Shown: positions 833-18,008 of the stretch, piece after piece
Position numbering within the stretch: the first letter of the stretch is position 1
Layout of the letters: each line of letters opens with the position of its first letter
Source: a virus
Length of the DNA: 24,940 nucleotides
IMG/VR virus record: IMGVR_UViG_3300017786_000130
Coordinates: 1 to 24,940 of that record
Direction: 5' to 3' (one strand)
The notes under the pieces: generated by a model
What the model saw: the letters and a program-made list of their open reading frames with translations, nothing else
Databases searched by the model: none
Told to the model about the DNA's origin: nothing
Made by a program: the position numbers and the translations under genes

Positions 833-1384
833 TTATGATAACCTAGCCATTATGAAATAGTTCTTAACTGGTATATTTTTGCCAAGTTGTTTTGAATATT
901 TGTTAAATTCTCTGTATTCTTCTTTGATTATTTCATAGCCCAAAGCCAAATGTTTCTGCCTCCACCAATCTGGTGTTTGCTGTATTAGGTGTGCATTTCG
1001 TCCATCTGGAAGTATAAGTTTGGCTGGCGCACAGCTAATTAAATGGTATATGTGTGTACTATGTTCTTTAATTTCTTCAAGTGTTTTATCTAAATGATTG
1101 GGCTCTATATGTTCTAAAACATCGGTTGAGAATATCAAATCAACTTTCTTTAGAGGAACATTAAATTTTGGATTAGCAGGATCGTAACCCATAATATCGA
1201 TAGTGGGGTAGTTGTGTTTTAGAACATCAAGTAGTTGTCCTTTACCACAACCAAAATCAATCATAGATCTAATTGATTGTTTGGAAATAAATCTTTTTAG
1301 ATATTCGGGTATTTTAGAACGCTTTCCAAACTTTGTTCCGCTATGTATAAGCGAAAGCATTTCTTGATATTCAGCTGATATCAT
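833..1384 (-). CDS. Class I SAM-dependent methyltransferase
   Basis: 183 residues. The SAM-binding motif I is at residues 43-50 (DFGCGKGQ), an acidic post-I residue lies in GYDP (66-69), and the Methyltransf_11/23-type motif DVLEHI is at 88-93. This is a single-domain Rossmann methyltransferase of ordinary short length. The substrate is not readable; its place at the end of glycan island 2 suggests sugar or glycolipid methylation, but this is inference. The ATG (1384) overlaps the upstream stop by four bases (ATGA). It is the last gene before the host-type promoter at 797-825; I see no terminator between them. Confidence 0.8.
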   Translation of the reverse strand: MISAEYQEMLSLIHSGTKFGKRSKIPEYLKRFISKQSIRSMIDFGCGKGQLLDVLKHNYPTIDIMGYDPANPKFNVPLKKVDLIFSTDVLEHIEPNHLDKTLEEIKEHSTHIYHLISCAPAKLILPDGRNAHLIQQTPDWWRQKHLALGYEIIKEEYREFNKYSKQLGKNIPVKNYFIMARLS

Positions 1385-1569
1385 TTGCTGTACTCACCAC
1401 GATCAAAACTAATCTCTCTACACAGGGTTTGAATGTCCTGTATAAGAAATTCGACTTGTGTTTCATCTCGTGTTTCTTTAGGTGTGTCATACTTTAGTTT
1501 TCTTAACTCTTCAGACTTTCTATAGATGACTTCGACCTTGTTGCACATATCACTGATTTTGTGTAACAT
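1381..1569 (-). CDS. Hypothetical protein, 62 residues, helical
   Basis: Not recognised. The protein is charged and predicted mostly helical, with two Cys residues and no membrane segment. An AAGGA ribosome site lies seven bases before the ATG at 1569, and the stop overlaps the next gene by ATGA, so it is a genuine operon member translated with the methyltransferase downstream. It may be a small partner of that enzyme; nothing in the sequence proves this. Confidence 0.6.
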   Translation of the reverse strand: MLHKISDMCNKVEVIYRKSEELRKLKYDTPKETRDETQVEFLIQDIQTLCREISFDRGEYSK

Positions 1570-1594
1570 ATAGTTTTCCTTTGCTGGTTGGTTT

Positions 1595-2341
1595 TCATAA
1601 TCCTATATCGCTAGTATAAATTTCTTCCATCAACGGTTTCCAAGCAGCCGAATGATTAATATGTTCTATCATTTTGCTATCATCGGAATATTGTAAATCT
1701 GCATTTGATAGTATCGGTAAATTTTCTAAATGTGCTGGAACTAGTTCTTGTGCATTGTAAAAGAAACAGTTAGTGCTACTAGTATCAAATCCAAAATACG
1801 AGTAATTAAAATGTTCAAAGAAAAGTTTCCACTTCTGCAAACTACAACCTGATGTAGTTAACTTTCCTTTCCTAATTGTTTTCCATGGCATACTTGGCAC
1901 ATGAGGAAAACTTGCAGTAACGTTAGGACCGAACTGATCTGTAAACTCTACACAAACTGTTTTGGGTCTAAAACCTCCGTTTAAAAACAATTCGTGTGCA
2001 ATAGCGTAGTCGAAACTATCAATATCTAAACTAAAAAAGTCGCAATTGTAAGGTACTTCTTTCATAAACTGTTGTGCATTGTGTGGGTAAACTTTAGATG
2101 CTATATGCTTAAACTTGTCTGTAAATCTTTCTTTACCTTTAGGATTTTCTCTTGCATCAACACCAACACCACTCCAATCTTTATCATATTGTAAGTAATT
2201 GGTCATGTTAGTGCCGCCATCGCCCCATCCAATCTCTAAAAATGTTTTGTCTGGATTTATAATAGAATTGGTCATCATTTCTATAATGCCATCTTCTCCA
2301 TGCTGTGAATAGACTTGTTTTTCGTAGTGTAATTTATACAT
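1595..2341 (-). CDS. FkbM-like / SAM methyltransferase-fold protein
   Basis: 248 residues. The N-terminus carries SQHGEDG (12-18) followed by LEIGWGDGG (35-43), a glycine-rich motif I, and VDARENP (61-67) as the acidic residue after the second strand; FFSLDIDSFDY further on matches the motif IV region of FkbM-like enzymes. The SQHGEDG lead is typical of a family of glycan-cluster methyltransferases. The start is the ATG at 2341, which lies inside the end of the upstream FkbM gene (8-bp overlap); a TTG one codon earlier is possible but less likely. The acceptor is unknown; its neighbours suggest O-methylation of a sugar. Confidence 0.65.
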   Translation of the reverse strand: MYKLHYEKQVYSQHGEDGIIEMMTNSIINPDKTFLEIGWGDGGTNMTNYLQYDKDWSGVGVDARENPKGKERFTDKFKHIASKVYPHNAQQFMKEVPYNCDFFSLDIDSFDYAIAHELFLNGGFRPKTVCVEFTDQFGPNVTASFPHVPSMPWKTIRKGKLTTSGCSLQKWKLFFEHFNYSYFGFDTSSTNCFFYNAQELVPAHLENLPILSNADLQYSDDSKMIEHINHSAAWKPLMEEIYTSDIGL

Positions 2342-2999
2342 CAAAGTACTCCATGGGTTTTGTAGCGTTGTCTATTCCTTTTTCAAACAATCCGTCTATT
2401 TGTAATACTTGTTCACCGTTATTGTGTTCAGTGATACAGTTAGTCAATCCAAATCCTATACTGTTCATTAGTTCTATCATTTGTAATCCTGTTGGTGCTC
2501 CTTCGTTGTAAGGCTTAATTGCAAGTTCAAGTATAACATACTTTGCTTTGTCTAGCAATATTTTTCCTCCGTCAATAACATCTTTTTCTGCACCTTGTAC
2601 ATCAATTTTAATTAAGTGAAAATGTCTGTCTGACAATATATCATCTAATCTTCTTACAGGCACTTGCATGGTTATTAAATCTTTGCCTTGTATCTCTGGG
2701 TAAAAACTTGCGCCTTTGCCTGCAGGCTTTCTTTCAGAATAATAAAAATCTAGTTCGCCTTCTTCTTTGCCAAGCGCAACTATTTGGTACTCGTCAATAT
2801 GTCCATTGGCTTGTTTTTTTCCTAGTTTTAATTCACAGTAAGGATTTGCTTCGATAGAATATATGTGTGCGTTACCAAATAACATTCTCATCTCTGTTGC
2901 AAATTGTCCTATGTTTGCACCTATGTCTAGAATGTGCGGGTGTGTACCCTTAGGCCAAACTACTAAATCTTGGATATTTTCAACAATAGGATGATCCAT
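2334..2999 (-). CDS. FkbM family methyltransferase
   Basis: 221 residues from the ATG at 2999. Motif I is DIGANIG (25-31), followed by YSIEANP (47-53) and, near the middle, RRLDDIL and LIKIDVQGAEKDVI, the signature of the FkbM family (SAM-dependent O-methyltransferases, often of sugars in polysaccharide clusters). A longer frame open to 3116 exists, but those extra 39 residues are out-of-frame translation of the small membrane protein gene upstream, whose stop overlaps this ATG as TAATG. I therefore prefer the short form. Confidence 0.85.
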   Translation of the reverse strand: MDHPIVENIQDLVVWPKGTHPHILDIGANIGQFATEMRMLFGNAHIYSIEANPYCELKLGKKQANGHIDEYQIVALGKEEGELDFYYSERKPAGKGASFYPEIQGKDLITMQVPVRRLDDILSDRHFHLIKIDVQGAEKDVIDGGKILLDKAKYVILELAIKPYNEGAPTGLQMIELMNSIGFGLTNCITEHNNGEQVLQIDGLFEKGIDNATKPMEYFDV

Positions 3000-3160
3000 T
3001 AATGTTCTCCGAACTGAATGCCAAAGAAAAAACCTAATGCCAATGACAATGGTATAATAATTAATAAATCCATAAGCCAATGTAAAGCAATAGCAAGGGA
3101 TACAATTTCTTTCCAATGTATTTTACATACATCTGCCCATTGCGTTACTTTACTAAACAT
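2999..3160 (-). CDS. Small membrane protein, 53 residues
   Basis: The frame starts at the ATG 3160, which overlaps the stop of the dehydrogenase gene as TAATG, and ends at TAA 3001-2999, which overlaps the FkbM ATG the same way. The N-terminal 20 residues are polar with several basic residues; residues 21-50 form one long, or two short, hydrophobic helices with an internal His-Trp and a Pro, ending FFFGIQFGEH. Exact coupling at both ends is strong support for a real gene. I do not recognise the family. It could anchor the glycan enzymes to the inner membrane, but that is inference. Confidence 0.7.
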   Translation of the reverse strand: MFSKVTQWADVCKIHWKEIVSLAIALHWLMDLLIIIPLSLALGFFFGIQFGEH

Positions 3161-3957
3161 TAATTTTCTCTCATCCCATTAAACACAGTCTTTTTTACTT
3201 TGCTGTTGTCCTCCGTAACAACGTCTAACAAATTAAATGGTAAGTCAAGTTTTTTAATTAATGATGCAAGAGCTTTTGTATCTTTAGGCAAACACATTCC
3301 GCCATAGCCACGTAGTTCAGGATAAACGTCTAAGTACATATCGATTGCTTTTCCTGTTTTAATATATGCATTCTTAATTGTATTGTAATCACAGTCTAAC
3401 TTCTCACAAATTTCGTACATTACGTTAGCAAACGTTACCCTTACAGCAGCATATACGTTATTATAGTATTTAAGTACTTCTGCTTCATTAGGTGTTAAGT
3501 GTACTACATTCTGTGGTAATTCTCCGTGACAGTCAACCATTTTTCTATGTACCCAAATATCATGTGTACCTACTGCAAGTAGTTTATGATTGTTAAGGAA
3601 ATCATCTAATGCACAACGTTCACGTAAAAACTCTGGAACAAAAGCAATTGTTAAGTTTTTATGTTTGTCAATCATGCTTTGTGTAAAGCCAGGTACTGCC
3701 GTACTTCTAATAGCAATAATACCTTTGTAATTAATTTCTGCAAGTTCATCTATTACACTTTCAATAATAGTTGTGTCGCAGTCTCCGTTATCCATGCTTG
3801 GTGTTGGTACACAAACAAATGTAATTTCTGTGTTGAATACATCTGTAATTTGTGTATCAAGTGTAATGTCGTGTCCAACAATTTCATGTCCAATGCTTTC
3901 AAATCCTGCTTTGTTTGCTGACCCTACTGTACCAAGTCCAATGATTCCTAGTTTCAT
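3160..3957 (-). CDS. UDP-glucose/GDP-mannose dehydrogenase-like enzyme, short form
   Basis: 265 residues. The NAD-binding GLGTVG is at 7-12, then VPTP (50-53), STAVPG (85-90), EFLRER (109-114), K163/N167 in the central helix, and the catalytic loop GYGGMCLPKDT with the nucleophile C222, K225 and D226. These match the NDP-sugar 6-dehydrogenase family (UDP-glucose to UDP-glucuronate, or related substrates), which oxidises the sugar C6 in two steps. Usual members are about 390-450 residues; this one stops shortly after the central domain and lacks the C-terminal NDP-sugar-binding domain. The end is a clean stop coupled to the next gene (TAATG), so it does not look like a recent truncation. It overlaps the upstream SDR gene by ATGA, suggesting the two act in the same pathway. 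Confidence 0.85.
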   Translation of the reverse strand: MKLGIIGLGTVGSANKAGFESIGHEIVGHDITLDTQITDVFNTEITFVCVPTPSMDNGDCDTTIIESVIDELAEINYKGIIAIRSTAVPGFTQSMIDKHKNLTIAFVPEFLRERCALDDFLNNHKLLAVGTHDIWVHRKMVDCHGELPQNVVHLTPNEAEVLKYYNNVYAAVRVTFANVMYEICEKLDCDYNTIKNAYIKTGKAIDMYLDVYPELRGYGGMCLPKDTKALASLIKKLDLPFNLLDVVTEDNSKVKKTVFNGMREN

Positions 3958-4811
3958 AATAATGACTCCACTGTATGTTTTAATCCTACCTTTAATGGTG
4001 TGTAACTAAAGGTATCCGTTAATTTAAGTAATTTAGATGTATCGGGACAACGGCGCTTTGCACTGCCTATTGGTCCTGGCATTATTTCAAGTTTATTAGG
4101 ATCTACATCCATAATGTCCATAATGATTTTTGCTACATCTGAAATTTTATTCTCTTCTTGCCTGCCTACATTTATAATTTCATTGCTATGCTTTTCTACT
4201 ACTTCGTGTGTAAGTTTAACAGCGTCATCAATGTAACAGAAACTACGTGTATCATCGCCTTTAATATAGTACTCGCCTTTTGCAACACGCTCTACAAACT
4301 CACTAATAAAATGATCTTTTTGTCTAGGACCGTAAATGTTAAAGTAACGTATTACTAACCATTGTAGTCCTGAATTAGATACTAAATTTTCACCAAGTGC
4401 TTTAGGTATACTGTAACTCCATCTTGGATTTAAAATGTCTTCGAAATGAATAGGAACATTTTCGTCTGTTGGAACAGGATATATTTCTTTGTCAATTGCT
4501 CCATTAAATATTTCACATGTGCTAGTAAACACAAACTTTGTATCGGTTCCAATGTAATGTTCAATTAAATTAAATGTTGGAAGTGTATTATTAAATGCAA
4601 CTTGTGTAGGAGTTTCGTAAAATAGTCTAGTACCATTTGTTGCTGCCATGTGTATCACTGTATCACATGCTGGCATTTGTTTAACAATATCAGTATCACA
4701 AAGATTCTGACCAGACACTAAGTCGTATGCAACTACATCATTACTATCTTTAATGTAATCATAGTAATGGCTTCCTATAAAGCCTTTGTGTCCAGTCAAT
4801 ACTATCTTCAT
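3954..4811 (-). CDS. NAD-dependent epimerase/dehydratase (extended SDR)
   Basis: 285 residues. The Rossmann motif GHKGFIG (7-13) and the catalytic YxxxK (Y133-SIP-K137), with FTSTCEIF (95-102) contributing the active-site Ser/Thr, place it in the extended SDR family of nucleotide-sugar epimerases, dehydratases and decarboxylases. RYFNIYGPRQ and the later YIDDAV and NVGRQ motifs fit that family. The product cannot be fixed: UDP-glucose epimerase, dTDP-glucose dehydratase and UDP-glucuronate decarboxylase all share these motifs. Pairing with a UGD-like gene makes a UDP-glucuronate-consuming reaction an attractive guess. It overlaps both neighbours by four bases. Confidence 0.85.
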   Translation of the reverse strand: MKIVLTGHKGFIGSHYYDYIKDSNDVVAYDLVSGQNLCDTDIVKQMPACDTVIHMAATNGTRLFYETPTQVAFNNTLPTFNLIEHYIGTDTKFVFTSTCEIFNGAIDKEIYPVPTDENVPIHFEDILNPRWSYSIPKALGENLVSNSGLQWLVIRYFNIYGPRQKDHFISEFVERVAKGEYYIKGDDTRSFCYIDDAVKLTHEVVEKHSNEIINVGRQEENKISDVAKIIMDIMDVDPNKLEIMPGPIGSAKRRCPDTSKLLKLTDTFSYTPLKVGLKHTVESLL

Positions 4812-5035
4812 TTAATTACGCCAATTTTCCAATTCTCTGCACAAGATTCAGCATATGCTTTGCTGTGACCAGTAACTGCTCTGCTCTCAATAAGTTCGCC
4901 GTTTTCAAACATGTCAACAACATAGACAGATTCTTCTCTTACGATAGCACTACGATTACTAACCATTTCTTGTATGAATTGTTTTTCAGACTTATTCTTA
5001 AGTCCGTTAAGTCCTTTCGTCGCCAATTTAATCAC
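4808..5035 (-). CDS. Hypothetical protein, 75 residues
   Basis: Not recognised. The GTG start (5035) forms a GTGA overlap with the stop of the upstream glycosyltransferase gene, and its stop overlaps the SDR ATG (ATGA), so it is coupled at both ends. The N-terminal third is Lys-rich; residues from about 35 look like a small beta-strand unit (SVYVVDMFENGELIESR) with an aromatic C-terminus (AENWKIGVIK). No membrane segment or known motif is seen. Confidence 0.6.
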   Translation of the reverse strand: MIKLATKGLNGLKNKSEKQFIQEMVSNRSAIVREESVYVVDMFENGELIESRAVTGHSKAYAESCAENWKIGVIK

Positions 5036-5784
5036 CTTTTTCCCTTCTTCATTCTTTTAATTGCACGAGCTAACTGCTCGTCTCTCTTTAATTTACGATC
5101 ACCTTTGTAGTGTATAATATGGTGTTCAAGTGCTGCATTGAAATGATTTTTGCCAAGTTCTGGAAAGCGTATACGTGCAATATCATAGTTGTGTATCTTA
5201 CCTTCTTTTTCCAGCCTTTCTCTTGCAGCATCAAATGCATGACAATCTAATTGCCCTGCGAGATCGTAAATTGTATCGTGTGTATAATATTCTTTCCATA
5301 CATCAAAGAACTCTGTTGCATGTTTATGATTTAAATCAAATGCAAGGAATCCTGTTTCTGTATAGTGTGGTCTTCCAAGATAACTTGTGAATAACCCTTC
5401 TGGCAAAAATCCTTTTAAGTAGTCTTCACTGATACTACTATAAATTTCAGCATCGCTATCAATCCAATACAGTGTATCTACATCGGCATTATTTGCACAA
5501 TGCCAAATACAATAACTTTTGTGACTGAACCTTACACCATCATAGATAAACTTACCAGGCACTCTATGTGCATTACGTTTTTTAAATTCTGTAAGTTCTG
5601 GTACTGACGGTTCTAACTTTCTAATAACAAAGTTAGCCGGAGGATTATCAATCTCAACGTTGTCTACATAGATGTAAACAGTGATATTAGGATCAACAAA
5701 CTTTCTTACACTTTCTACAAAGTGTCTGCCATACTCGTGATACCCGTTATCACTAAATGTTGATACGATGCCAAGTTTTTTCAT
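5032..5784 (-). CDS. GT-A-type glycosyltransferase (DSD motif)
   Basis: 250 residues. The N-terminus reads STFSDNGYHEYG, with a Ser-Val-Pro and LTEFKK segment and then RFSHKSYCIWHCA followed by YWIDSD; D109-S-D111 is the likely metal and nucleotide-sugar DxD motif. The same ordered blocks occur in the island 1 protein at 10966-11778, so the two are paralogs. The C-terminus has a His-rich block (LEHHIIHYKGDRK) matching YLDHLKGGRK there, and ends strongly basic. It starts at the ATG 5784, which overlaps the cupin stop as TAATG. The donor and acceptor are unknown. Confidence 0.65.
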   Translation of the reverse strand: MKKLGIVSTFSDNGYHEYGRHFVESVRKFVDPNITVYIYVDNVEIDNPPANFVIRKLEPSVPELTEFKKRNAHRVPGKFIYDGVRFSHKSYCIWHCANNADVDTLYWIDSDAEIYSSISEDYLKGFLPEGLFTSYLGRPHYTETGFLAFDLNHKHATEFFDVWKEYYTHDTIYDLAGQLDCHAFDAARERLEKEGKIHNYDIARIRFPELGKNHFNAALEHHIIHYKGDRKLKRDEQLARAIKRMKKGKR

Positions 5785-6140
5785 TATGTCTTAGTACCAA
5801 CAGTTCTACGCACAATGTCGTCGTGGTTGAACTCTGCCCAGTATAGCTCAAATGCTACACCATCTTCAAGTCCTTCGAACTGATGGATCTTGCCGGGCTT
5901 CACTTGCGTAAAGTCTCCAGCTTCAAGAATAGTTTCGTCAACTAATCCTTTTTGTTCTCCGTCCTGCCAAACACGTATTAACATCTTGCCTGACTCAACA
6001 AAGAAGCCATTCCACTTAAATTGATGTTCGTGTTCAGAACACTTAAAACCTTTATTATATTCAATGCGGTGAAACTCTAGTACACCGTTTGCATGGACTA
6101 ACTCTGTGTTACCCCAAATCTTTCCTGCTTTGATACCCAT
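5784..6140 (-). CDS. Cupin-domain protein
   Basis: 118 residues, a single small beta-barrel. Metal-ligand candidates are H37 and H39 in SEHEHQ and H86 in KPGKIHQF, spaced as in the two conserved cupin motifs (HxH with a downstream Glu region, then PxxxxHxF). Such one-domain cupins are common in polysaccharide clusters as sugar isomerases or epimerases or as binding proteins. An AGGAG ribosome site stands shortly before the ATG at 6140. The gap upstream (6141-6178) holds no clear promoter, so it is probably read from the promoter at 6715-6743. Confidence 0.7.
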   Translation of the reverse strand: MGIKAGKIWGNTELVHANGVLEFHRIEYNKGFKCSEHEHQFKWNGFFVESGKMLIRVWQDGEQKGLVDETILEAGDFTQVKPGKIHQFEGLEDGVAFELYWAEFNHDDIVRRTVGTKT

Positions 6141-10089: not shown

Positions 10090-10118
10090 ATTATATAATA
10101 GAATGCCGCAAAGATCAA
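10090..10118 (-). promoter_or_regulatory. Sigma70-type promoter of the helicase module (leaderless geometry)
   Basis: Minus strand: TTGATC (10118-10113), 17 bp, TATAAT (10095-10090). The -10 box is perfect and ends six bases before the ATG at 10083, so the predicted first transcribed base is the A of the start codon. The -35 box overlaps the stop codon of the upstream glycosyltransferase gene. The spacing is the same as at the promoter 797-825. Confidence 0.65.
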
Positions 10119-10966
10119 GAGTTAATTTGCGTTTTTAGGTAATTTTCTAATCTTTTTAGAGGCAGTCCTTGTTCTATTTCTTCTACCGTAAATTCAGTCC
10201 ATGCATAATCATTTAGCCACTGTTCTCTGTCATGCAAAATAGGATCTTCAATAGTAGATAGACTAGACATACTAACATTGTATGCTAAACTTGAAGGTCC
10301 TGTGTACGCTGGTACACCATTTATGACGCTGTGAATACCTGGATTGCTTGACCAACTTATAGTTGCCCATACATCTTCGAATGACATGTCGAAATCGTCA
10401 TACGTACCAGACACATGCACAGGGTGCTGTCTAGTAACGTTGGGTAAGTATGCTTCAATTAAGTCTAACTGGCATCTAGGATGCGGTCTAAACATAATCA
10501 CTCTATCTGAATACTTTCTAATTTCAGTTACAGTGTCTGTTACCCACGAACTCATTGGCGGCATGCCTTTCCATTGCAAACTTTTATCATGTTGTCCACA
10601 TAACAAAATGTGTCTACCTTCTTTACGCCACGGTTTTAAAAATAACCCAAGAGCATTGCGACGAGTATTATCATTATTATCACTCCCAAAATAAGCGTCC
10701 CGATTAATTCCATTCACTCCTACCTTCCATGTGGTTCCTCTTTTGATTCCACCGACCTCAAGTACGATGGTGGGTTTGGATTGATTCCATATACCTTGAT
10801 TAGGCGCCATTCTACCATTAAACAGTACACTCCAAATAACATTAACGTCACTGTCAGTATCGGAATCAGTAACAGTGTGCCCGCAAGATACAATGCTACG
10901 TTCAAAAGCAGCAAAAATAGGTTTAGAATTAAGTGCGCCATATTGCTTCCACAGTTTGAATTTCAT
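10115..10966 (-). CDS. Capsule-type (KpsC/KpsS-like) glycosyltransferase, paralog 1
   Basis: 283 residues. Key blocks: KPWRKEG (111-117) followed by RHILLCGQ, then RPHPR (160-164) and WSSNPG (205-210) with INGVPA (215-220), then DREQWLNDYAWTEFTVEEIEQG near the end. RxHP plus a Ser/Asn-rich loop before a GVP motif is the pattern of capsule-polysaccharide (Kdo-transferase-like) GT-B enzymes. It shares the KPWR, Ser/Asn and W...F..EE..G blocks with four other genes of this island. It starts at an ATG overlapping the previous stop (TAATG). It is the last gene of glycan island 1. The acceptor and donor are unknown. Confidence 0.6.
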   Translation of the reverse strand: MKFKLWKQYGALNSKPIFAAFERSIVSCGHTVTDSDTDSDVNVIWSVLFNGRMAPNQGIWNQSKPTIVLEVGGIKRGTTWKVGVNGINRDAYFGSDNNDNTRRNALGLFLKPWRKEGRHILLCGQHDKSLQWKGMPPMSSWVTDTVTEIRKYSDRVIMFRPHPRCQLDLIEAYLPNVTRQHPVHVSGTYDDFDMSFEDVWATISWSSNPGIHSVINGVPAYTGPSSLAYNVSMSSLSTIEDPILHDREQWLNDYAWTEFTVEEIEQGLPLKRLENYLKTQINS

Positions 10967-11778
10967 TATTGGTTCCAGTATGGTTCCGTTCTTGGTACAA
11001 GTAGGTCTGTACGTTTGCTTTTTCCAAGGGCTTTACGTCCTCCTTTAAGATGATCAAGGTATGCTCCCCACATTGAGTTAATTAATGGATGTCCTTCACC
11101 AGTAACAAGTCCTGCTGCCCAATCCCATTCGTACATTTTAATTCTTTGACGGACAACATCAAACACAAAACTATCATGCCATTCTGGCATTTGAAAAATA
11201 CCGTCATTTTCTGCTTCATCATATACACGTTGAAACTCTTTCATAAATCTCTTGGTTTGTTTGTTACCTAGTGTAAGTGAATATAACCCACATTCACTAA
11301 ATTTGCCTTTTCTACCAAGAAAACACACATCAAAGTTAGGTGGTGTTAATTCATTTAGTCTTTCGTATGTGATTGGACTATGACAAAACGTATCTGCATC
11401 CATCCACATCAATCTTTGTGTGTCACATACTGTTGCACAATGAAAAATACTGTAAACTTTATGTGCAAAGCGAATTGCGTCCCATTTAAATCCTTTTCCT
11501 GAGTCTCTTCTTTTACTTCTTATAGGATCTCCGCTTACATCACCGTTTGCTTTAGGTACATCTTTCCATGTATTCTTAAATGCTACAAGATTTGGTACTG
11601 ACGAGTGTAAATCGTACAATATAATTCTATTATGGTCCTTAATTCGCGGATTACAGTCTTCTGCGTATACATGTAGCTTCACTTCTTCTGGCCAATTATC
11701 GATAAAACTGTCGATCATGCGTTGTCCGTACTGTTGTAAGCCTTTTGCGTGGAATGTTGTTACTACACTAATTGTCAT
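10966..11778 (-). CDS. GT-A-type glycosyltransferase (DAD motif)
   Basis: 270 residues from the ATG at 11778, which overlaps the upstream stop (ATGA) and has a GGAG site 11 bases upstream; a longer frame from a TTG at 11811 is less likely. TTFHAKGLQQYG at the N-terminus, SSVPNLVAFKN (59-69), RFAHKVYSIFHCA (103-115) and MWMDADT (124-130) align block by block with the island 2 protein at 5032-5784; D127-A-D129 is the probable DxD. Compared with that paralog it carries a short basic insertion (about 80-98, SGDPIRSKRRDSGKG). Confidence 0.65.
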   Translation of the reverse strand: MTISVVTTFHAKGLQQYGQRMIDSFIDNWPEEVKLHVYAEDCNPRIKDHNRIILYDLHSSVPNLVAFKNTWKDVPKANGDVSGDPIRSKRRDSGKGFKWDAIRFAHKVYSIFHCATVCDTQRLMWMDADTFCHSPITYERLNELTPPNFDVCFLGRKGKFSECGLYSLTLGNKQTKRFMKEFQRVYDEAENDGIFQMPEWHDSFVFDVVRQRIKMYEWDWAAGLVTGEGHPLINSMWGAYLDHLKGGRKALGKSKRTDLLVPRTEPYWNQ

Positions 11779-12194
11779 TGGAAAAAATCTCCGTTTTTCT
11801 TGCAAGTCCAAACGTGAAAAGTGCCAGCCTGTGCAACTGCATTGTACTTATGTCTATAAAGATTAGCACTTTGTACTCTATCTATCACTTTCTCGTCTTG
11901 AATGAAAACATCTGGACTTGGATTACTTAAAATTGAACCCATATGGTCCAACACTTTTAATAAATCTCTATCTATAAAGATTGTTGTTATAGTTGGAACA
12001 AAACAATCCTTTAATTTTGACTTATATACAACATTTGCACGTCTTACTCTTGGTGCACCTTTGTCATATACAAAAACAGTGCCAAATAAATCAAATAATT
12101 CATCAAATACCCCAAGTCCTTGCCCTATAACTAAGCAATCAACAAAAGGTGTCTTAACTGCACTCTTTAAAATTCTTTTTGTTGTCTTTGACAC
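11775..12194 (-). CDS. Unknown protein, 139 residues, Rossmann-like N-terminus
   Basis: The GTG start (12194) follows the FkbM stop by one base, with AAGGA nearby. The N-terminal segment VDCLVIGQGLGVFDELFDLF then GTVFVYDKG has the shape of a nucleotide- or SAM-binding beta-alpha-beta unit, and TITTIFIDRDLLKVLDHM may be another strand-helix. At 139 residues it would be a minimal or degenerate methyltransferase. I do not recognise it with confidence. Its position between an FkbM gene and a glycosyltransferase, with overlaps, makes it part of the glycan operon. Confidence 0.55.
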   Translation of the reverse strand: MSKTTKRILKSAVKTPFVDCLVIGQGLGVFDELFDLFGTVFVYDKGAPRVRRANVVYKSKLKDCFVPTITTIFIDRDLLKVLDHMGSILSNPSPDVFIQDEKVIDRVQSANLYRHKYNAVAQAGTFHVWTCKKNGDFFQ

Positions 12195-12195
12195 A

Positions 12196-12942
12196 CTATC
12201 TTCCTTGTTGTAAAGGTATTACCTTGCCACTTTTACCACTAAATTTCTCATACGGACCGTCGCCTAAATATCTACCCATATGATTTTTAGCAGGAGCCAT
12301 AAATCCTGTCTTCGGAGCCATAATCATGACTCTTTTTGACTTCATGTACACTTGGTCGTAGTTTCTTTCTAAGAAAAAGTTAACTGCTGTGTCTACATCG
12401 TTATTAATCTCAAAACATACCCAAGGATTTTGCTCTTCGATGACTTTTTCCATGCCTAAAATTGCAGGAAGTTCATAACCTTGTACATCAATTTTAATTA
12501 ATGAAATATTTTTAAGATTTTCGTCATCTAATCTCTTTACTTGCACCGTATAAAAGTCAGGTGACTCCCACATTGCAATTTTACTGTCTCCGCAGTTCTT
12601 AATACCGTCATGAAACTGTACAACGACTTCTTTATCACCAAGTGCTGAATCTCTAACTTCAACATTTGCAGCATCACCTAAATTCTTTATTAAACATTCA
12701 TGAACTCTTGTACTAGGTTCATAAGATACAATTTTCTGAAAATGTTTTTTCATATCCATTGACCAAACACCTACATTTGCTCCTACATCTACAAATGTTT
12801 GCTTCAAAGGTATAGTATCAATGATCCTTTGCCTAATTTTTCTTTCATAGTTGGGGTTAGACATGTCGGTATCTTCTTGAATATGTCTTGTCATTTTAAC
12901 TTCGTTGTCTGGCATGTACCAGCCGTTGTCTAACTGTATCAT
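12196..12942 (-). CDS. FkbM family methyltransferase
   Basis: 248 residues. Motif I VDVGANVG (51-58), SYEPS (73-77), and the FkbM signature KRLDD (136-140) plus LIKIDVQGYE (148-157) are all present, followed by WVCFEIN. It is thus a close relative in type of the protein at 2334-2999. It has an extra C-terminal tail of about 50 residues ending in a Lys/Gly-rich stretch. The ATG (12942) overlaps the preceding stop (ATGA), with an AGGAG site upstream. It probably O-methylates a sugar of the glycan made by the neighbours; this is inferred from family and context. Confidence 0.85.
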   Translation of the reverse strand: MIQLDNGWYMPDNEVKMTRHIQEDTDMSNPNYERKIRQRIIDTIPLKQTFVDVGANVGVWSMDMKKHFQKIVSYEPSTRVHECLIKNLGDAANVEVRDSALGDKEVVVQFHDGIKNCGDSKIAMWESPDFYTVQVKRLDDENLKNISLIKIDVQGYELPAILGMEKVIEEQNPWVCFEINNDVDTAVNFFLERNYDQVYMKSKRVMIMAPKTGFMAPAKNHMGRYLGDGPYEKFSGKSGKVIPLQQGR

Positions 12943-13853
12943 AAGTATCTCCTAAAGTGTCGCCATGCCTCACCTGAGGCTAATTCTTCAAAGTTCCAAT
13001 GACACATTGCTAACTTTTGCACCCAATCTTCTCTATCAAAAAGTTTAGGATCGTTTATTCTTTTTATTTTTGTATTAGATACTTCGTGACTTTGACTGTG
13101 TTCAGGTTGTGGGTCTGTTAAGAACACAGGCACGCCTTCGATAGCACTAACTACACTCGGACTACTATTATATAGCACAGTTGCCCAAGCACCTTGTAAA
13201 TCTTGTAATATACTGGGGTTACTGCTTAAAAACACGTCTTTGTGTTGTGGGAAGTATCTAGTTTTTTTATCTCCTGGATGACCTCTAACAATTATTGGTC
13301 TATCCGTAATCTCTCTTAGTGTTGCAATAGTATCGTTTGCCCATTGTACGCTGTTATACCCACGCATACTCCACCCACCGTTACGTTGCAAACAAACTAG
13401 AATATGATTACCACTTGTTCTCCATGGTTTCATTTGTATACCTAGTTTGCTACTAATTTTTGTCCATCTGTTAGGATCAACATCTGTATCAAAGTAAAAT
13501 CCTGTTGTAGGGAACACGCCGTTGAAACTGTATCTTAAATAACGATTTACATTTCCGCTATCGTATGCTAAGAATAAGTTACTGTCTACAATTAATGCTT
13601 TTTTACCGTTATTAACTTGTTGTTCAACTGCATTTCTTCTTAAAACTAAATGAGGTGCAGTTTTTCCATGCTCGTGTACAAAGCCTTGTATAAGTGCAAC
13701 ATCAGCATTTGGTACAACTTGCATTGCTGTTTGTGCAACAGCAGTGTCGCCAGAATTTCGTACCCCAGTTAAAAAATTATCTAGGATCATAGGTTTCTCT
13801 AGATTATTATTATGTGGCGGAATACCCCCGTAATATGCTACTGCTACTGTCAT
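12939..13853 (-). CDS. Capsule-type (KpsC/KpsS-like) glycosyltransferase, paralog 2
   Basis: 304 residues. KPWRTSG (142-148) then HILVCLQ; RGHP (190-193); NSSPSVVSAIEGVPVF (229-244) and DREDWVQKLAMCHWNFEELASG close to the end repeat the block order of paralog 1. It is the one member besides paralog 1 that retains the R-x-H-P motif. The N-terminus has its own strand-rich unit (TVAVAYYGG and DVALIQGF). It overlaps both neighbours by ATGA, consistent with a polycistronic glycan operon. Confidence 0.6.
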   Translation of the reverse strand: MTVAVAYYGGIPPHNNNLEKPMILDNFLTGVRNSGDTAVAQTAMQVVPNADVALIQGFVHEHGKTAPHLVLRRNAVEQQVNNGKKALIVDSNLFLAYDSGNVNRYLRYSFNGVFPTTGFYFDTDVDPNRWTKISSKLGIQMKPWRTSGNHILVCLQRNGGWSMRGYNSVQWANDTIATLREITDRPIIVRGHPGDKKTRYFPQHKDVFLSSNPSILQDLQGAWATVLYNSSPSVVSAIEGVPVFLTDPQPEHSQSHEVSNTKIKRINDPKLFDREDWVQKLAMCHWNFEELASGEAWRHFRRYL

Positions 13854-14956
13854 GGTAGTCTCTTTACGTTCTTAACTGCTACGCCATTCATAAGCTCTTC
13901 TTTTGTATATTGAGAATATGAAAGCATACACAACCAAGAACCTAAGTTGCCTCGGAACAAATCGTTAATATCAGAAAGTTTATTACGTGTAACTGGATTA
14001 GTAATATGTGTATCTAGTGTAATTGCAGGAACTCCAGCCCAAATTGCTTCTGTTGCTGCATTACTATTGATGTTTACTACACAGTAATAATCGTCATTTA
14101 AGAGCTCTTTATGTAAGTTACTTCTCTGCTTTTTAGGTGCCTTAGATCTAAATCTAATGCGCTTGTCAGTATACTTGCGTAACTCTTTTGCTACATCATA
14201 CTTCCAAGTTTTTAAATCTACATGCATAATACTTGCTGCAAAAGGCCCAGGTTCAATTACGTAAATAATTTCGCCACCTTTCCTCCAAGGTTTAGGAAAC
14301 TTTTTAAAATTGCCTAATCTATCCGAAGGTGCATCAAATGACTTGCCATAGTGTAAATGACTACGAACAACTCTATGCCATACTTTGTTTGTTTCTAAAA
14401 AGTTAGTATATCCACTGTCAATAAACCAAAAAGGATAGTTGTTATCAATTTTTCCAACAAGTAAATCTTCGTTACCTACAGTGTTTCTAATTAAACAATC
14501 TTCTTGTAAACTTGTAAAATCTCTTCTACGAATGTAAGTATTATCTTTACCGTCGCCTACCCATTGCCCTGTACCTTTTACAAAGTTTTTATAGCGAGAC
14601 TTTTTGTATGATTCAAATATATTTTCTATACCAAATGCATCAATGAAATATTCTATATTATTATGGATAGCATCAAAGTAAGCATTACGTATGTGACCTT
14701 TATTGGTATTAATTACATCCACCCATTCATCTAAATCTCTACGCACAGCCTTGAACAATTTGTCTTTAAACTTTTTCTTTTCTTCTGGTTCAAGTTTTCG
14801 AGTAGGGTCTTTCCACTTAGACTTTTTACTAATATGGTCTTGAATGTATGTTGCTGTATACCTATCTTGAATATTAAACTTATAAAGTTCTTCGGGAACA
14901 GGTACTAGCGATAACAAATAGTTTGCAATCTCTTTGTCATTCATTAACAGTTTCAT
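13850..14956 (-). CDS. Capsule-type glycosyltransferase paralog 3, with a long N-terminal extension
   Basis: 368 residues, the longest of the five paralogs. The shared part starts at about 165: FIDSGY (178-183), HRVVRSH (194-200), KPWRKGG (222-228), NSNAATEAIWAGVPA (297-311) and LSYSQYTKEELMNG. Residues 1-150 are extra: Lys-rich and mostly helical (PEEKKKFKDKLFKAVRRDL, then NAYFDAIHNNIEYFIDAFG). That extension may bind an acceptor or partner. The R-x-H-P motif is not conserved (FRSKAPKK instead). The start is at an ATG overlapping the previous stop (TAATG). Confidence 0.55.
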   Translation of the reverse strand: MKLLMNDKEIANYLLSLVPVPEELYKFNIQDRYTATYIQDHISKKSKWKDPTRKLEPEEKKKFKDKLFKAVRRDLDEWVDVINTNKGHIRNAYFDAIHNNIEYFIDAFGIENIFESYKKSRYKNFVKGTGQWVGDGKDNTYIRRRDFTSLQEDCLIRNTVGNEDLLVGKIDNNYPFWFIDSGYTNFLETNKVWHRVVRSHLHYGKSFDAPSDRLGNFKKFPKPWRKGGEIIYVIEPGPFAASIMHVDLKTWKYDVAKELRKYTDKRIRFRSKAPKKQRSNLHKELLNDDYYCVVNINSNAATEAIWAGVPAITLDTHITNPVTRNKLSDINDLFRGNLGSWLCMLSYSQYTKEELMNGVAVKNVKRLP

Positions 14957-15735
14957 TAAGAGTATTTCTCCACTAGTTTATATGCACGGCCCTGTTCTAC
15001 TTCATCAAATGTAAATTGTCCATAGGCTAAACTATGACAGTGCTGTAATATTTTATCTGTTTCAGGTCTGTACGGATTACTAAGCTGACTCAGATCGGTT
15101 GAGGCTAACGGTGATGCTGCACAAGGTACACTTACAAATGCAGGTACACCGTATAGGACTGATTCTAGTGCAGCCATGCTGTTCATTGCAACAGTAGCAT
15201 ATACACCAGATTCAAATGCGTCATAAATTGAGTACTCAAAGTTACGCTCTGTGCGTGATCCTTTTATTCGTACTTCAATAGGTAGATCGCAATACTGTTT
15301 AATTTTCTTTGTAGTTTGCTTGACCCATTTATCATAATCAATATCGTACCAAACACATGCTTTAGGATTAGGCATTACTAAAAGAATCTTTTTATCGTAG
15401 TTCTTCCAACCTTTCCATATTAGTCTTGGATCATGTTCAACTAGCATGTTCCATCTGTCATACGGTATATCGGGTCTAAATGTAGAAAGTTGATTTTCGT
15501 TTTTAACAATACGGTGCCATTTCTTTCCACCTTTCTTGTTACCTGGACTGGGAAAATTTCCGAAGTACCCTGTATCAATGTACCAGTAATCTCTATTTTC
15601 TTTTACACAATTATCAGCGTGATGCTTTTTAATTACCCCTCTGATAACCATTGGTTTGTCTAACACAGCTGAATCAACTGTTAACCTGTGCTTTGATCCT
15701 TCTACCAATATTTCTTCAGGAGATAATTTATCCAT
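14956..15735 (-). CDS. Capsule-type glycosyltransferase paralog 4
   Basis: 259 residues. WYIDTGYFGN (51-60), KKWHRIVKN (71-79), KKILLVMPNP (115-124), NSMAALESVLYGVPAF (185-200) and LAYGQFTFDEVEQGRAY near the end. It is most like paralog 5 (16424-17233) in its N-terminal half. The K-P-W-R block is altered to WKGWKNYDK, and R-x-H-P is replaced by EVRIKGSR. The start overlaps the previous stop (TAATG). The enzyme class is an inference from these shared blocks. Confidence 0.55.
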   Translation of the reverse strand: MDKLSPEEILVEGSKHRLTVDSAVLDKPMVIRGVIKKHHADNCVKENRDYWYIDTGYFGNFPSPGNKKGGKKWHRIVKNENQLSTFRPDIPYDRWNMLVEHDPRLIWKGWKNYDKKILLVMPNPKACVWYDIDYDKWVKQTTKKIKQYCDLPIEVRIKGSRTERNFEYSIYDAFESGVYATVAMNSMAALESVLYGVPAFVSVPCAASPLASTDLSQLSNPYRPETDKILQHCHSLAYGQFTFDEVEQGRAYKLVEKYS

Positions 15736-16433
15736 TAAAGGTTAACCTTAAATTTCATCATCTCAAATAATTCTCTTTTCCATTGCTTATGATATGTGCA
15801 TCTACGATAGTTTTCAAACCACGGTCCGCCTTCTGTATAATGAATTGCTTTTGGTTTGCTGTCTTCTGTTTCATCATACCAGTCAACTAACCAATTCCAT
15901 TCTTTACCTAGCTCGCCAATTTCACTATCATCTAACCAACTAAATCTGTGTAAGTATGCTCCTGTAATATCAGGATCGTTTACAAGATCCATTGTAATTT
16001 TTTTGTTACTAGGATGTCCACAGTTGTATAAAATTACACTTGACCAGTTTTTACGTGGATATATTGTTTGTTTTTGTCCGTCCATCTTTACACCTTCTTT
16101 AGGTGTATAATCATGTTGTACACACATAACTGCATACTTGTCATCTGCTTGGTCAAATAATTCTTTTATATCTGTTAAGAAAATAATGTCACTATCACAA
16201 AACAATGCCCATCCATCAAAGTTTGTAAGCTCTGGTACTAGGAAGCGTGTAAAAGTAAATTCTGTTGATGCTAGTTTATCTACAGGTCGATGATACCAAC
16301 CTTGTTCTCTTAATTCATTTTGTTTTAACGGTGTTACTGATACGTTTTCATTTCTTGTTAAGATACTATGTCTGCAAACTTGATATGCAATATCTTCTCT
16401 AGTGTCGTATCCTACGAATACTTTTAAGTCCAT
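15735..16433 (-). CDS. GT-A-type glycosyltransferase (GT8-like, DSD motif)
   Basis: 232 residues from ATG 16433, chosen over a GTG at 16448 because GGAGG stands just before this ATG. VFVGYDTREDIAYQVCRHSI at the N-terminus, FTRFLVPEL (61-69), and LFCDSDIIF (77-85) with D80-S-D82 are the usual order in GT8-like or related GT-A enzymes that use a nucleotide sugar and a divalent metal. A late His-containing block (KAIHYTEGGPWFENY) matches the C-terminal metal-ligand HxxGxxKPW-type motif in spirit. It overlaps the upstream gene by 10 bp. Confidence 0.7.
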   Translation of the reverse strand: MDLKVFVGYDTREDIAYQVCRHSILTRNENVSVTPLKQNELREQGWYHRPVDKLASTEFTFTRFLVPELTNFDGWALFCDSDIIFLTDIKELFDQADDKYAVMCVQHDYTPKEGVKMDGQKQTIYPRKNWSSVILYNCGHPSNKKITMDLVNDPDITGAYLHRFSWLDDSEIGELGKEWNWLVDWYDETEDSKPKAIHYTEGGPWFENYRRCTYHKQWKRELFEMMKFKVNL

Positions 16434-17233
16434 TGTTCCTCCAAACACGCTCTTGCTCTTCCTGTGCGTAACTCACTATCGTGAAATTGACCTGCTGCTA
16501 AATGACAGCCCCAAGCAAACAATTTATCACTGCTTGGGTAATACGGTGCTTCTATTAATGATAAGTCTTGTAGTCCGACTGGGTTTGCTGCACTAACAGG
16601 CGCTAACGTAAACACCGGAATACCCTGAAATACACTCTCAACTGCTGCATTACTATTAAATGTAACAAGAGCGTACACATCGTCGTCTAAGGCTTCTTCT
16701 AGCGTGTTATGTAGCATTCTATCTGCTCTTTGTTTATTACGTTGCCTAATTTCAATAGGCCTGTCAGTATGTTGTTTAAGTGTGTTAACAGTTTCTGATA
16801 ACCACTCTTCTAAATCAAGATCATAAAACTTCATAGGCTTTTCGTCTGGCGCAGCAATAAGAATCTTTCTACCTTTCTTATTCCACGGCTTAAACTTTTT
16901 ACCAAAGCCTTCGAATCTGCTTGAAGGGCGATCAATAAGTTTATTATGTTGAAGATTGTTCTTTACAATACGATGCCAAAACTTCCAACCATTAGGGTTA
17001 CTAGGAGTTACTTCGTTACCAAAGTATCCTGTATCCATATAATAAAAATCTCTACCATCTTCCCAACATTTATGCATCCATTTCTTTTTTAAGATACCTC
17101 GTAACACAATAGGATCTTCTGAAGCATCATAATTAAACGTATTAGAATCCTCAACAGGTGCACCGCACCCTCGAGCGAAACGATTTATATAGGGGTCTTT
17201 TTTACCCTTGCTTACAAAAATCCAATTAGTCAC
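16424..17233 (-). CDS. Capsule-type glycosyltransferase paralog 5
   Basis: 269 residues. YYMDTGYFGN (64-73), WHRIVKNNL (86-94), KPWNKKG (115-121) then RKILIAAPD, NSNAAVESVFQGIPVF (193-208), and a C-terminal LAAGQFHDSELRTGRA. A near-duplicate of paralog 4 in organisation, separated from it by the GT8-like gene. The start is a GTG overlapping the end of the nucleotidyltransferase gene; an AGAGGA lies about 12 bases upstream. R-x-H-P is replaced by EIRQRNK. Confidence 0.55.
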   Translation of the reverse strand: MTNWIFVSKGKKDPYINRFARGCGAPVEDSNTFNYDASEDPIVLRGILKKKWMHKCWEDGRDFYYMDTGYFGNEVTPSNPNGWKFWHRIVKNNLQHNKLIDRPSSRFEGFGKKFKPWNKKGRKILIAAPDEKPMKFYDLDLEEWLSETVNTLKQHTDRPIEIRQRNKQRADRMLHNTLEEALDDDVYALVTFNSNAAVESVFQGIPVFTLAPVSAANPVGLQDLSLIEAPYYPSSDKLFAWGCHLAAGQFHDSELRTGRARACLEEQWT

Positions 17234-18008
17234 GTCTTTCGATATCCTCTTCTATACAGGCTTCCCCGTATTGAACTTCTAGTATGTGTGTTAAATCATC
17301 TGTGGGGTTACTTGCTTTATGCCAAGTACCTACTGAAATATCATATCCTTTTGTTAAGGGTAAAAGCTCTACAGTATCACTAATGTTGTTCCACTCTGTT
17401 TGCATTTTAACTTTGCCTTTTAGTACATACCAATGTTCTGATCTTTGAAAGTGTCTTTGATCAGAAAGACATGCACCTGGCTCAATTACTAATTCTTTAA
17501 TTTTAAAATTGTTTTCAGGTTGATGATCTAATACTCTATACCAACCCCATTTGCGTTTTGTTTTAGGTGTTTTCCATTCTCCTAAAATCCAACTACTTGA
17601 ATTCTTTTTATCTGTACCACCAACACCAAATTGAAATTCTACTCTATTGTTGTCAGTAAACTTTTCTACTTCTGGTGAATTGCCTTCACCTCTATCTCCA
17701 CCGTTAGCAAATACTATTCTGTCATGCATTGTTTCAGATGTTTTAAGTGCTACGTCTATCGCACCACATGCCGATCCTTCCTTATCATCTTCAAATGTAA
17801 TAACATTATCTACTACAGCAAGTTCTTTAATAATAGCAATTCTTTCTTCAACGGGCATAAAAGGCATGCCCTTTTTATTTGTTAACCATTCGTCACTGTT
17901 AACACCAACCCATAACTCGTTACCAAGTTCTTTGGCTGCTTTAAAGTAGGCAATATGCCCGGAATGTAAGGGGTCAAACCCGCCTGTAACTAGTACGATT
18001 CTTTTCAT
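17226..18008 (-). CDS. Nucleotidyltransferase-cupin fusion (sugar activation enzyme)
   Basis: 260 residues, two domains. Residues 1-145: cytidylyltransferase/RfaE-C-like fold with GGFDPLHSGH (9-18; HxGH at 15-18 binds the nucleotide phosphates) and NSSSWILG (136-143) as the C-terminal motif of that family. Residues 155-260: mannose-6-phosphate-isomerase-type cupin as found at the C-terminus of type II mannose-1-phosphate guanylyltransferases, with WGWYRVL, PGACLSDQRHFQRSEHW (177-193), GTWHKASNP and EVQYGEACIEEDIERRD. The first domain would transfer a nucleotide to a sugar phosphate; the second may isomerise it. It is the first gene of glycan island 1. The ATG has no Shine-Dalgarno sequence and lies five bases after TATAAATA. 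Confidence 0.8.
   Translation of the reverse strand: MKRIVLVTGGFDPLHSGHIAYFKAAKELGNELWVGVNSDEWLTNKKGMPFMPVEERIAIIKELAVVDNVITFEDDKEGSACGAIDVALKTSETMHDRIVFANGGDRGEGNSPEVEKFTDNNRVEFQFGVGGTDKKNSSSWILGEWKTPKTKRKWGWYRVLDHQPENNFKIKELVIEPGACLSDQRHFQRSEHWYVLKGKVKMQTEWNNISDTVELLPLTKGYDISVGTWHKASNPTDDLTHILEVQYGEACIEEDIERRD

What the first reader, a model, noticed from the sequence alone, without database searches (positions are those of the whole stretch)
10115..17233. Five diverged paralogous capsule-type glycosyltransferases in one phage operon
Genes at 10115, 12939, 13850, 14956 and 16424 (left ends) share ordered blocks: a (I/M)D(T/S)GY block followed by HR-V-(K/R) in three of them, KPW(R/N)xxG before a hydrophobic strand in four, a Ser/Asn loop plus G(V/I)P, and a terminal (F/Y)..(E/D)E...G segment. 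Only two keep RxHP, so catalytic chemistry may have changed in the others. Repeated duplication within one viral operon suggests stepwise assembly of a complex glycan, or diversification under selection.
Basis: partly seen in the sequence, partly recalled or inferred. Interest (0 to 1): 0.75.

Follow-up and report, generated by a model that had tools for sequence, protein, structure and literature searches.

The report
Phage capsule-type glycosyltransferases lacking catalytic nucleophile
A giant, apparently marine phage carries five old, diverged copies of a bacterial capsule-sugar enzyme that have all lost the amino acid their bacterial relatives need for catalysis yet are still kept intact by selection, so they probably build a phage-made sugar chain by a changed chemistry.

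Summary
The five genes are true paralogs: HMMs built from other phages' orthologs of each gene find the other four at E 4e-6 or better; the best of 5,000 decoys reaches 0.037. AlphaFold models of two (pLDDT 95-96) match the retaining beta-Kdo transferases KpsC and WbbB best (Z 13.5 and 11.6 for KpsC). None of the five keeps the Asp nucleophile of QxxxD: it is Ser in 47/47 members of the 10115 clade and Gly in 53/53 of the 12939 clade; in the HP-less clades Gln is Pro and His is Lys/Arg (57/57). A sister clade and some other phages keep the full set. The genes lie in an old island between uvsY and uvsW of jumbo phages, with a GT8 enzyme fused to a family member in 19/44 islands. Sister phages carry KdsA+KdsB just downstream. 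Most likely they are active cytosolic transferases with altered chemistry. The acceptor (virion or host surface) is unresolved. New variant of a known kind.

The parts
10115..10966 (-). Family member F1 (283 aa): acidic Glu70, Gln125, Ser129 at the nucleophile position, Arg160, His162-Pro163 (RPHP)
   Evidence: Model pLDDT 95.8; best match KpsC Z 13.5; residue mapping; Q, S, H, P each 47/47 in its non-redundant clade
12939..13853 (-). Family member F2 (304 aa): acidic Asp90, Gln156, Gly160 at the nucleophile position, His192-Pro193 (RGHP)
   Evidence: (Q, G, H, P each 53/53); type present in 44/44 non-redundant islands
13850..14956 (-). Family member F3 (368 aa), HP-less type with about 110-aa N-terminal extension; acidic Asp180, Gln->Pro236, nucleophile position Ala240, His->Lys272
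14956..15735 (-). Family member F4 (259 aa), HP-less type; acidic Asp54, Gln->Pro122, nucleophile position Ala126, His->Lys158
16424..17233 (-). Family member F5 (269 aa), HP-less type; acidic Asp67 (MDTGY), Gln->Pro129, nucleophile position Pro133, His->Arg165
   Evidence: Model pLDDT 95.3; best match KpsC Z 11.6
15735..16448 (-). GT8-family glycosyltransferase between F5 and F4; fused to an HP-less family domain in other phages
   Evidence: Pfam Glyco_transf_8 26.6 bits, cut-off 24.3; fusion in 19/44 islands
17226..18008 (-). Nucleotidyltransferase (HldE domain II-like) fused to mannose-6-P-isomerase-type cupin
   Evidence: the HldE-like match is below NCBIfam's cut-off (69.1 against 181.5 bits)
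12196..12942 (-). FkbM-family methyltransferase
10966..11811 (-). Protein of glycosyltransferase look (GTx; my reading, no Pfam match), related to 5032
   Evidence: 26% identity to 5032, E 6e-27; GTx type in 43/44 islands
11775..12194 (-). Small protein of unknown function inside the cluster
   Evidence: relatives at the same place in several sister loci
833..5784 (-). Second module: methyltransferase 833, 1595 (no family match), FkbM 2334, short UDP-glucose dehydrogenase 3160, NAD epimerase 3954, GTx 5032. It lies in the slot (between cupin 5784-6140 and gene 169) that holds KdsA-KdsB in sister phages

Best explanation
The five genes are ancient paralogs in a phage-borne branch of the KpsC/KpsS/WbbB/KrkA (retaining beta-Kdo transferase) fold. 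With a GT8 enzyme, FkbM methyltransferases and nucleotide-sugar enzymes they form a cytosolic glycan assembly island of T4-like jumbo phages. Shown: homology, fold (two of five modelled), a conserved acidic residue aligned with the general base, loss of the Asp nucleophile in all five, His-Pro kept in two and replaced by a basic residue in three, purifying selection. Inferred: they are active transferases that no longer use the covalent Asp-sugar intermediate. 10115 and 12939 (Gln and HP kept) would still use a CMP-ulosonate such as CMP-Kdo, but by direct attack of a base-activated acceptor, giving the opposite anomer. The three HP-less enzymes would use another, probably nucleoside-diphosphate, donor. 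Each would add one sugar to a chain on a cytosolic acceptor; I lean slightly to a virion protein over a host glycolipid.
For: Residues: MAFFT puts KpsC Glu66, Gln156, Asp160 and HP in the columns of 10115 Glu70, Gln125, Ser129, His162-Pro163 and of 16424 Asp67; hhalign pairs Gln156/Asp160 with Gln125/Ser129 without a gap. Residue roles are from PMC9587256, PMC10148158 and PMC12887879. Clade states; the acidic residue is present in 174 of 176 (2 gaps), the Arg before HP in 176 of 176. A clade of 19 (one with a gap at the acidic site) and three outside sequences keep E, Q, D, HP. Kdo link: KdsA (over NCBIfam's equivalog cut-off) beside KdsB in sister phages. GT partnership: GT8 fusion. No exporter found: 0/35 contigs for ABC2_membrane and for Polysacc_synt. 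Virion lean: in a prophage, a Bradyrhizobium phage-plasmid, CcrColossus and podovirus ct7QV12 the gene lies among or beside structural genes.
Against: No activity is shown for any member. Loss of a nucleophile also fits a non-catalytic partner. In WbbB the donor's anomeric carbon is buried so that an acceptor cannot reach it without reorganisation of the site (PMC9587256, passage); direct attack would need a changed site. Asp127 beside the lost site in 10115 could stand in, though it is D in 33, E in 11 and other residues in 3 of 47. By Foldseek E-value, UDP-sugar-using SenB chains mix with the Kdo enzymes for 16424 (13 Kdo-type, 11 SenB, 1 other of the 25 chains at E <= 0.001; TM to SenB 0.29-0.33, to Kdo enzymes 0.39-0.50). 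The contigs with five copies have no KdsA/KdsB (0 of 5), so CMP-Kdo would have to come from the host. Similarity to KpsC by sequence alone is weak (hhalign probability 2-4%; 77% for KpsS against the sister clade). In the window the island adjoins recombination genes, and in Mosig the genes adjoin RuvC and ribonucleotide reductase, not capsid or tail genes.
Confidence: 0.58

Rival explanations
1. The nucleophile-less copies are pseudo-transferases: scaffold or regulatory partners of the GT8 enzyme (and of the intact QxxxD paralog where present).
For: All five lack Asp, and three also lack Gln and HP. The HP-less domain is fused to GT8 in 19/44 islands.
Against: The acidic residue and the Arg before HP stay fixed, the Ser of the loop too, and the clades have their own invariant residues at the lost sites (Ser, Gly, Lys/Arg), which suggests a retuned active site rather than decay. 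dN/dS 0.06-0.20. The QxxxD paralog is in only 8/44 islands; copies elsewhere in those genomes are not excluded.
Confidence: 0.2
2. 10115 and 12939 are still retaining Kdo transferases that use a surrogate nucleophile (Asp127 or Ser129) or an internal-return (SNi) mechanism.
For: Gln and HP, the CMP-Kdo determinants, are invariant in both clades; KdsA/KdsB lie in sister islands.
Against: Position 127 is not invariant (D 33, E 11, others 3 of 47), and in the 12939 clade the nucleophile site is Gly in 53/53 with N 35, D 7, Q 5, P 3 and 3 others two residues earlier. PMC9587256 argues that the donor geometry seen in WbbB precludes SNi without reorganisation (passage).
Confidence: 0.17
3. The island remodels host LPS or capsule (superinfection exclusion during slow infection), as proposed for LPS genes of cyanophages and marine jumbo phages.
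For: Kinship to capsule enzymes and KdsA/KdsB. Similar proposals in PMC5332604 and PMC9123017 (passages).
Against: No polysaccharide exporter or flippase family found in 35 long contigs, though the contigs are mostly fragments and the host could supply one. In four other phage groups the gene sits among or beside virion genes, though not in Mosig.
Confidence: 0.4
4. The glycan decorates phage DNA (T4-type glucosylation).
For: Neighbours are DNA-metabolism genes (uvsX, uvsY, uvsW).
Against: No enzyme for making a modified base showed up among the window proteins scanned with Pfam or PHROGs; the contig is a fragment, so the rest of the genome is unseen.
Confidence: 0.05

Closest known systems
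KpsC (GT107), WbbB N-domain (GT99), KrkA N-domain (GT140): retaining beta-Kdo transferases
   Same: Whole-chain fold, acidic residue at the base site, and in 10115/12939 the Gln and HP of the CMP-Kdo site
   Different: No Asp nucleophile in any of the five; three also lack Gln and HP; short single modules of 259-368 aa; phage-borne
KpsS (initiating Kdo transferase) and KpsS1 (GT118, pseudaminic acid; from PMC12887879)
   Same: KpsS is the best residue-level match of the intact sister clade and has the same E(E/D)G(Y/F) motif
   Different: Window copies lack the catalytic Asp; no acceptor known
Hypothetical proteins of Pelagibacter phage Mosig EXVC030M (QOI69148.1, QOI69146.1) and of Caulobacter phages such as CcrColossus gp127/gp128
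   Same: Members of the same family by HMM, next to genes annotated as glycosyl- or methyltransferases or similar
   Different: One or two copies; no KdsA or KdsB match in these records at E 1e-5; annotated only as hypothetical
LPS gene sets of cyanophages and marine jumbo phages (PMC9123017, PMC5332604, PMC10653327; passages)
   Same: Phage-encoded LPS/capsule sugar genes, including kdsA or kdsB
   Different: The passages read do not mention KpsC-type transferase arrays or lost nucleophiles
Tetraselmis virus 1 proteins, two of them named 'Capsule polysaccharide biosynthesis protein' (BFVD)
   Same: Same predicted fold as 16424 (query TM 0.60-0.71 for four proteins)
   Different: Giant virus of an alga; residues not examined

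Membership tests
Retaining beta-Kdo transferases (GT99/GT107/GT140) | GT-B variant fold shared by KpsC, WbbB and KrkA | tested here: met
   Two of five modelled; KpsC and WbbB best (Z 13.5/12.2 and 11.6/11.5), KrkA tied with the next chains; three not modelled
Retaining beta-Kdo transferases (GT99/GT107/GT140) | Asp nucleophile of QxxxD | tested here: not met
   Ser, Gly, Pro, Ala, Val or Ile in all five and in 157 of 157 non-redundant members of the seven clades other than the QxxxD clade; sequence alignment, geometry not measured
Retaining beta-Kdo transferases (GT99/GT107/GT140) | Gln of QxxxD and His-Pro (CMP) motif | tested here: inconclusive
   Met in 10115 and 12939; not met in 13850, 14956, 16424
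Retaining beta-Kdo transferases (GT99/GT107/GT140) | Acidic general base (KpsC Glu66) | tested here: met
   Glu70/Asp90/Asp180/Asp54/Asp67 in the same alignment column; sequence alignment only, geometry not checked; WbbB takes its base from another element (PMC9587256)
Retaining beta-Kdo transferases (GT99/GT107/GT140) | Transfer of Kdo from CMP-Kdo with retention | not testable with these tools
   Needs enzyme assay and NMR
Pfam Capsule_synth PF05159 | Match over the curated cut-off | tested here: not met
   No match for the five window proteins; 3 of 87 family members match at E <= 0.01, best 1.7e-5
Pfam DUF6716 (putative glycosyltransferase) | Match over the curated cut-off (27 bits) | tested here: not met
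   16424 scores 15.6 bits; 11 of 62 members of A2 match at E <= 0.01, best 0.0013
GT8 (for 15735) | Pfam Glyco_transf_8 over cut-off | tested here: met
   26.6 bits against 24.3

The most novel reading that the evidence does not exclude
Nature has repeatedly turned a covalent-intermediate (retaining) Kdo-type transferase into nucleophile-free enzymes while keeping the general base: Ser in one lineage, Gly in another (with Asn in an outside relative, L213), and a wholly rebuilt donor site with an invariant Lys/Arg in a third. These work side by side as a phage assembly line. They would be, as far as the papers read here tell, the first members of this fold that are not retaining ulosonate transferases.
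Probability: 0.37. Interest if true: 0.82.

Novelty: new variant of a known kind. Interest (0 to 1): 0.62.

Why it matters
[quoted passage not shown] This phage family supplies relatives with and without the nucleophile, sometimes in one island, so the step from covalent to direct transfer becomes testable. It also places a CMP-Kdo supply (KdsA, KdsB) next to such enzymes in sister jumbo phages, pointing to a phage-made Kdo-type glycan of unknown purpose.

Tried and rejected
Recent tandem duplication: rejected, since the copies group with orthologs of other phages and 44/44 non-redundant islands carry 12939-type, HP-less and GT8 genes. Decay: rejected. Sialic or pseudaminic acid route: NeuB family in 0/35 contigs. 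PHROGs: no match at E 0.001 for any of 62 members of A2. Chance similarity: rejected. No DNA glucosyltransferase is named among the 50 rows listed in each; this excludes nothing.

First family HMM was contaminated by GT8 through fused proteins; replaced by a domain-limited one. Sequence-only search of solved structures gave WbbB at E 0.43 for the whole family (HP and Ser motifs align), nothing relevant for A2 and nothing for the intact clade alone. IQ-TREE timed out; the tree with outside phages is FastTree on a subsample of 105 sequences. Several nodes in it are weak (0.31-0.66), the root is midpoint, the 14956 clade is weak in both trees (0.47-0.58), and CcrColossus gp128, which lacks HP, falls on the HP side. 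Cellular (non-phage) members were not found, but the search was narrow: of 199 genomes of one phylum, 6 matched. Two of these have it on T4-like phage contigs, one in a prophage-like region (L211), one on a 3.5-kb contig (L212), and two at E about 3e-4 were not examined. The one scan of genome contigs gave only the two phage contigs of one MAG.

Biases: loci were fetched with 16424, 10115 and the window's UDP-glucose dehydrogenase as queries, so counts of those gene types are inflated; 12939-type, GT8 and KdsA/KdsB were not queries. Loci are not one per virus; thins them by shared 60-mers (73 to 44 and 50 to 38), and the window itself drops out as a near-copy of another locus. Habitat of the IMG/VR records was not seen; 'marine' rests on Mosig and on the Red Sea MAG.
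Full report
What is there. The window is a 24.9-kb viral contig with its genes on the - strand: terminase, an SSB, UvsX, UvsY, then the island, then UvsW. Terminase and UvsX are nearest to those of jumbo phages such as Sinorhizobium phage Phosso, Agrobacterium phage Atu_ph07 and PA5oct (52-66% identity). A contig with a similar gene order is 269,730 bp long (L019), and a 335,231-bp contig in a Neomarinimicrobiota MAG is the same kind of phage (L119), so the window is most likely a piece of a jumbo phage genome (inference).

Paralogy. All ten pairs of the five proteins align. HMMs built from each gene's orthologs, without the window sequence, find the other four at E 4.1e-6 to 8.2e-72; the best of 5,000 shuffled proteins reaches 0.037. 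In a tree of 181 sequences the five fall in separate clades within two superclades: an HP side (10115, 12939 and a third clade absent from the window) and an HP-less side (16424, 14956, 13850, GT8-fused domains, Mosig copies) (support 0.82-0.85 for the split, midpoint root). Clade support is 0.995 or more for 10115, 12939, 13850 and 16424 and 0.58 for 14956. A second tree with outside phages gives the same split (0.86-0.92). One outside sequence without HP, CcrColossus gp128, falls on the HP side in both. The duplications are therefore old. Five copies are not the rule: of 44 thinned islands 26 have three copies, 8 four, 6 five and 4 two. dN/dS against orthologs at least 87% identical (one pair for 12939, four or five for the others, not independent) is 0.06-0.20 for all five, like uvsX (0.06-0.18).

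Fold. AlphaFold2 gives pLDDT 95.8 for 10115 and 95.3 for 16424. By VIA-align the best PDB chains for both are KpsC and WbbB: KpsC Z 13.5 (rmsd 3.6, 227 aligned) and WbbB 12.2 for 10115; KpsC 11.6 (rmsd 5.2, 237 aligned) and WbbB 11.5 for 16424. KrkA follows (10.6; 9.8) but lies within 1 of the next chain, a UDP-GlcNAc epimerase (9.7; 8.9). By Foldseek, ranks 1-27 for 10115 are all KpsC, WbbB or KrkA (query TM 0.34-0.55); for 16424, 13 of the 25 chains at E <= 0.001 are of these and 11 are SenB, a UDP-sugar enzyme with lower TM. So HP-positive and HP-negative copies share this fold. The other three were not modelled.

Active site. In the bacterial enzymes a Gln and an Asp of QxxxD bind the Kdo carboxylate and form the covalent adduct, an HP motif binds CMP, and a Glu is the general base (PMC9587256 and PMC10148158, passages; PMC12887879, abstract and two sections). 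I aligned the family with KpsC and KpsS of E. coli Nissle 1917. Gln156 matches Gln125, Asp160 matches Ser129, and HP matches HP. hhalign places Gln and Ser/Asp the same way without a gap; its best score is with KpsS and the intact clade (77%, E 2e-5), while KpsC alone scores low (2-4%). States in the eight non-redundant clades (176 of the 181 sequences; the five outside sequences are counted apart): 10115 clade Gln, Ser, His and Pro each 47/47; 12939 clade Gln, Gly, His and Pro each 53/53; five HP-less groups Gln->Pro 57/57, nucleophile position Pro, Ala, Val or Ile 57/57, His->Lys 47 and Arg 10 of 57; third clade Gln, Asp, His and Pro 19/19. The acidic residue is present in 174 of 176 (the other 2 have a gap), the Arg before HP in 176 of 176. 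Of the five outside sequences the podovirus keeps Q, D and HP; the two of Mosig and the two of CcrColossus lack Asp at this site. A prophage-like region and a short MAG contig also keep Q, D and HP, so the window states look derived (inference); the 12939-like copy of another phage contig has Asn there (L213).

Island. In 73 loci that span uvsY to uvsW (44 after thinning), 12939-type, HP-less and GT8 genes are in 44/44, 10115-type in 40/44, the QxxxD clade in 8/44, and GT8 is fused to the HP-less domain in 19/44. GT8 and 12939 were not search queries. Downstream, in 38 thinned loci that span cupin to w169, 23 carry KdsA and KdsB without the dehydrogenase-epimerase pair, 3 carry both sets, 9 carry UDP-glucose dehydrogenase and epimerase without KdsA/KdsB (as in the window), 2 neither and 1 KdsB only (the dehydrogenase was a query, so its count is inflated). 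One representative was named by NCBIfam: KdsA passes two equivalog cut-offs (319.8 against 314; 329.9 against 242) and not a third; KdsB is best matched by KdsB models but falls below their cut-offs (182.9 against 193). By family HMM in 35 long contigs: KdsA-type 20, KdsB-type 17, NeuB 0. The five contigs with five copies (G006, G012, G013, G018, G024) have neither KdsA nor KdsB. Exporter families ABC2_membrane and Polysacc_synt: 0 of 35 each; many contigs are fragments.

Where else. Named phages with the family: Mosig, 14 Caulobacter phage records (some are duplicate entries) and podovirus ct7QV12, 16 of 50,697 records in each of two searches. In CcrColossus the genes lie between tail and lysis genes, in ct7QV12 one gene before terminase, in a Bradyrhizobium phage-plasmid between portal and tail genes, and in a prophage-like region after portal and capsid genes and before long tail-like genes (Pfam confirms only portal and capsid). 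In Mosig they lie beside RuvC and ribonucleotide reductase genes. On balance I lean to a virion acceptor, only slightly over a host-surface one.

How it probably works. Inference: the acceptor, activated by the acidic residue, attacks the donor directly in 10115 and 12939, where Gln and HP still fit a CMP-ulosonate; in the three others the rebuilt site with an invariant Lys or Arg fits a pyrophosphate donor. The number of transferases (five plus GT8 and the GTx proteins) suits a chain of several sugars, finished by FkbM methyltransferases. None of this has been assayed.

Novelty. Phage LPS genes and kdsA/kdsB in marine viruses are known (PMC5332604, PMC10653327, PMC9123017; passages); a jumbo-phage paper lists glycosyltransferases among core genes of another lineage (PMC12619734; passages); the Mosig announcement has no word on glycosyltransferases (PMC7892664; term search). 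Relatives stand in databases as hypothetical, uncharacterized or glycosyltransferase. The listings of my ten searches of the paper library (1 to 15 papers shown per search, some of several hundred hits) showed no report of nucleophile-less KpsC-type enzymes or of KpsC-type arrays in phages; subscription papers and preprints are not held. I call it a new variant of a known kind.

Noticed in passing
window 17226-18008: Nucleotidyltransferase resembling HldE domain II (69.1 bits, cut-off 181.5) fused to a mannose-6-phosphate-isomerase-type cupin; in 43 of 44 islands.
   Followed up: partly
window 3160-3957: Short UDP-glucose dehydrogenase (265 aa; Pfam finds the NAD-binding and central domains, no C-terminal one); 73 loci with a relative.
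   Followed up: partly
window 10966-11811 and 5032-5784: Two related proteins of glycosyltransferase look (E 6e-27) without a Pfam match; the first lies on the opposite strand in many sister islands.
   Followed up: partly
window 8893-10083: 396-aa protein just before UvsW without Pfam or PHROGs match; many sister phages have at this place a protein of about 400 aa without BLAST match to it.
   Followed up: no
L119, L120, L194: Jumbo-phage-like contigs (335 kb and 153 kb) sit in a Neomarinimicrobiota MAG (PBPT01), by misbinning or infection.
   Followed up: partly
L210: Bradyrhizobium elkanii plasmid pUSDA31-2 encodes portal, tail tube and tape measure proteins, so it looks like a phage-plasmid; it carries one family member.
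   Followed up: partly
L211 8062-8742: MptE-like protein (below Pfam's cut-off) near the intact (QxxxD, HP) family member in a prophage-like region.
   Followed up: no
BFVD matches: Tetraselmis virus 1, a giant algal virus, has at least four proteins of this fold, two named capsule polysaccharide biosynthesis proteins; from recall, Tetraselmis scales are rich in Kdo.
   Followed up: no
LR756500.1, PQ898602.1: KdsA and KdsB matches also in an uncultured 462-kb phage and in Synechococcus phage S-SCSM2R.
   Followed up: no
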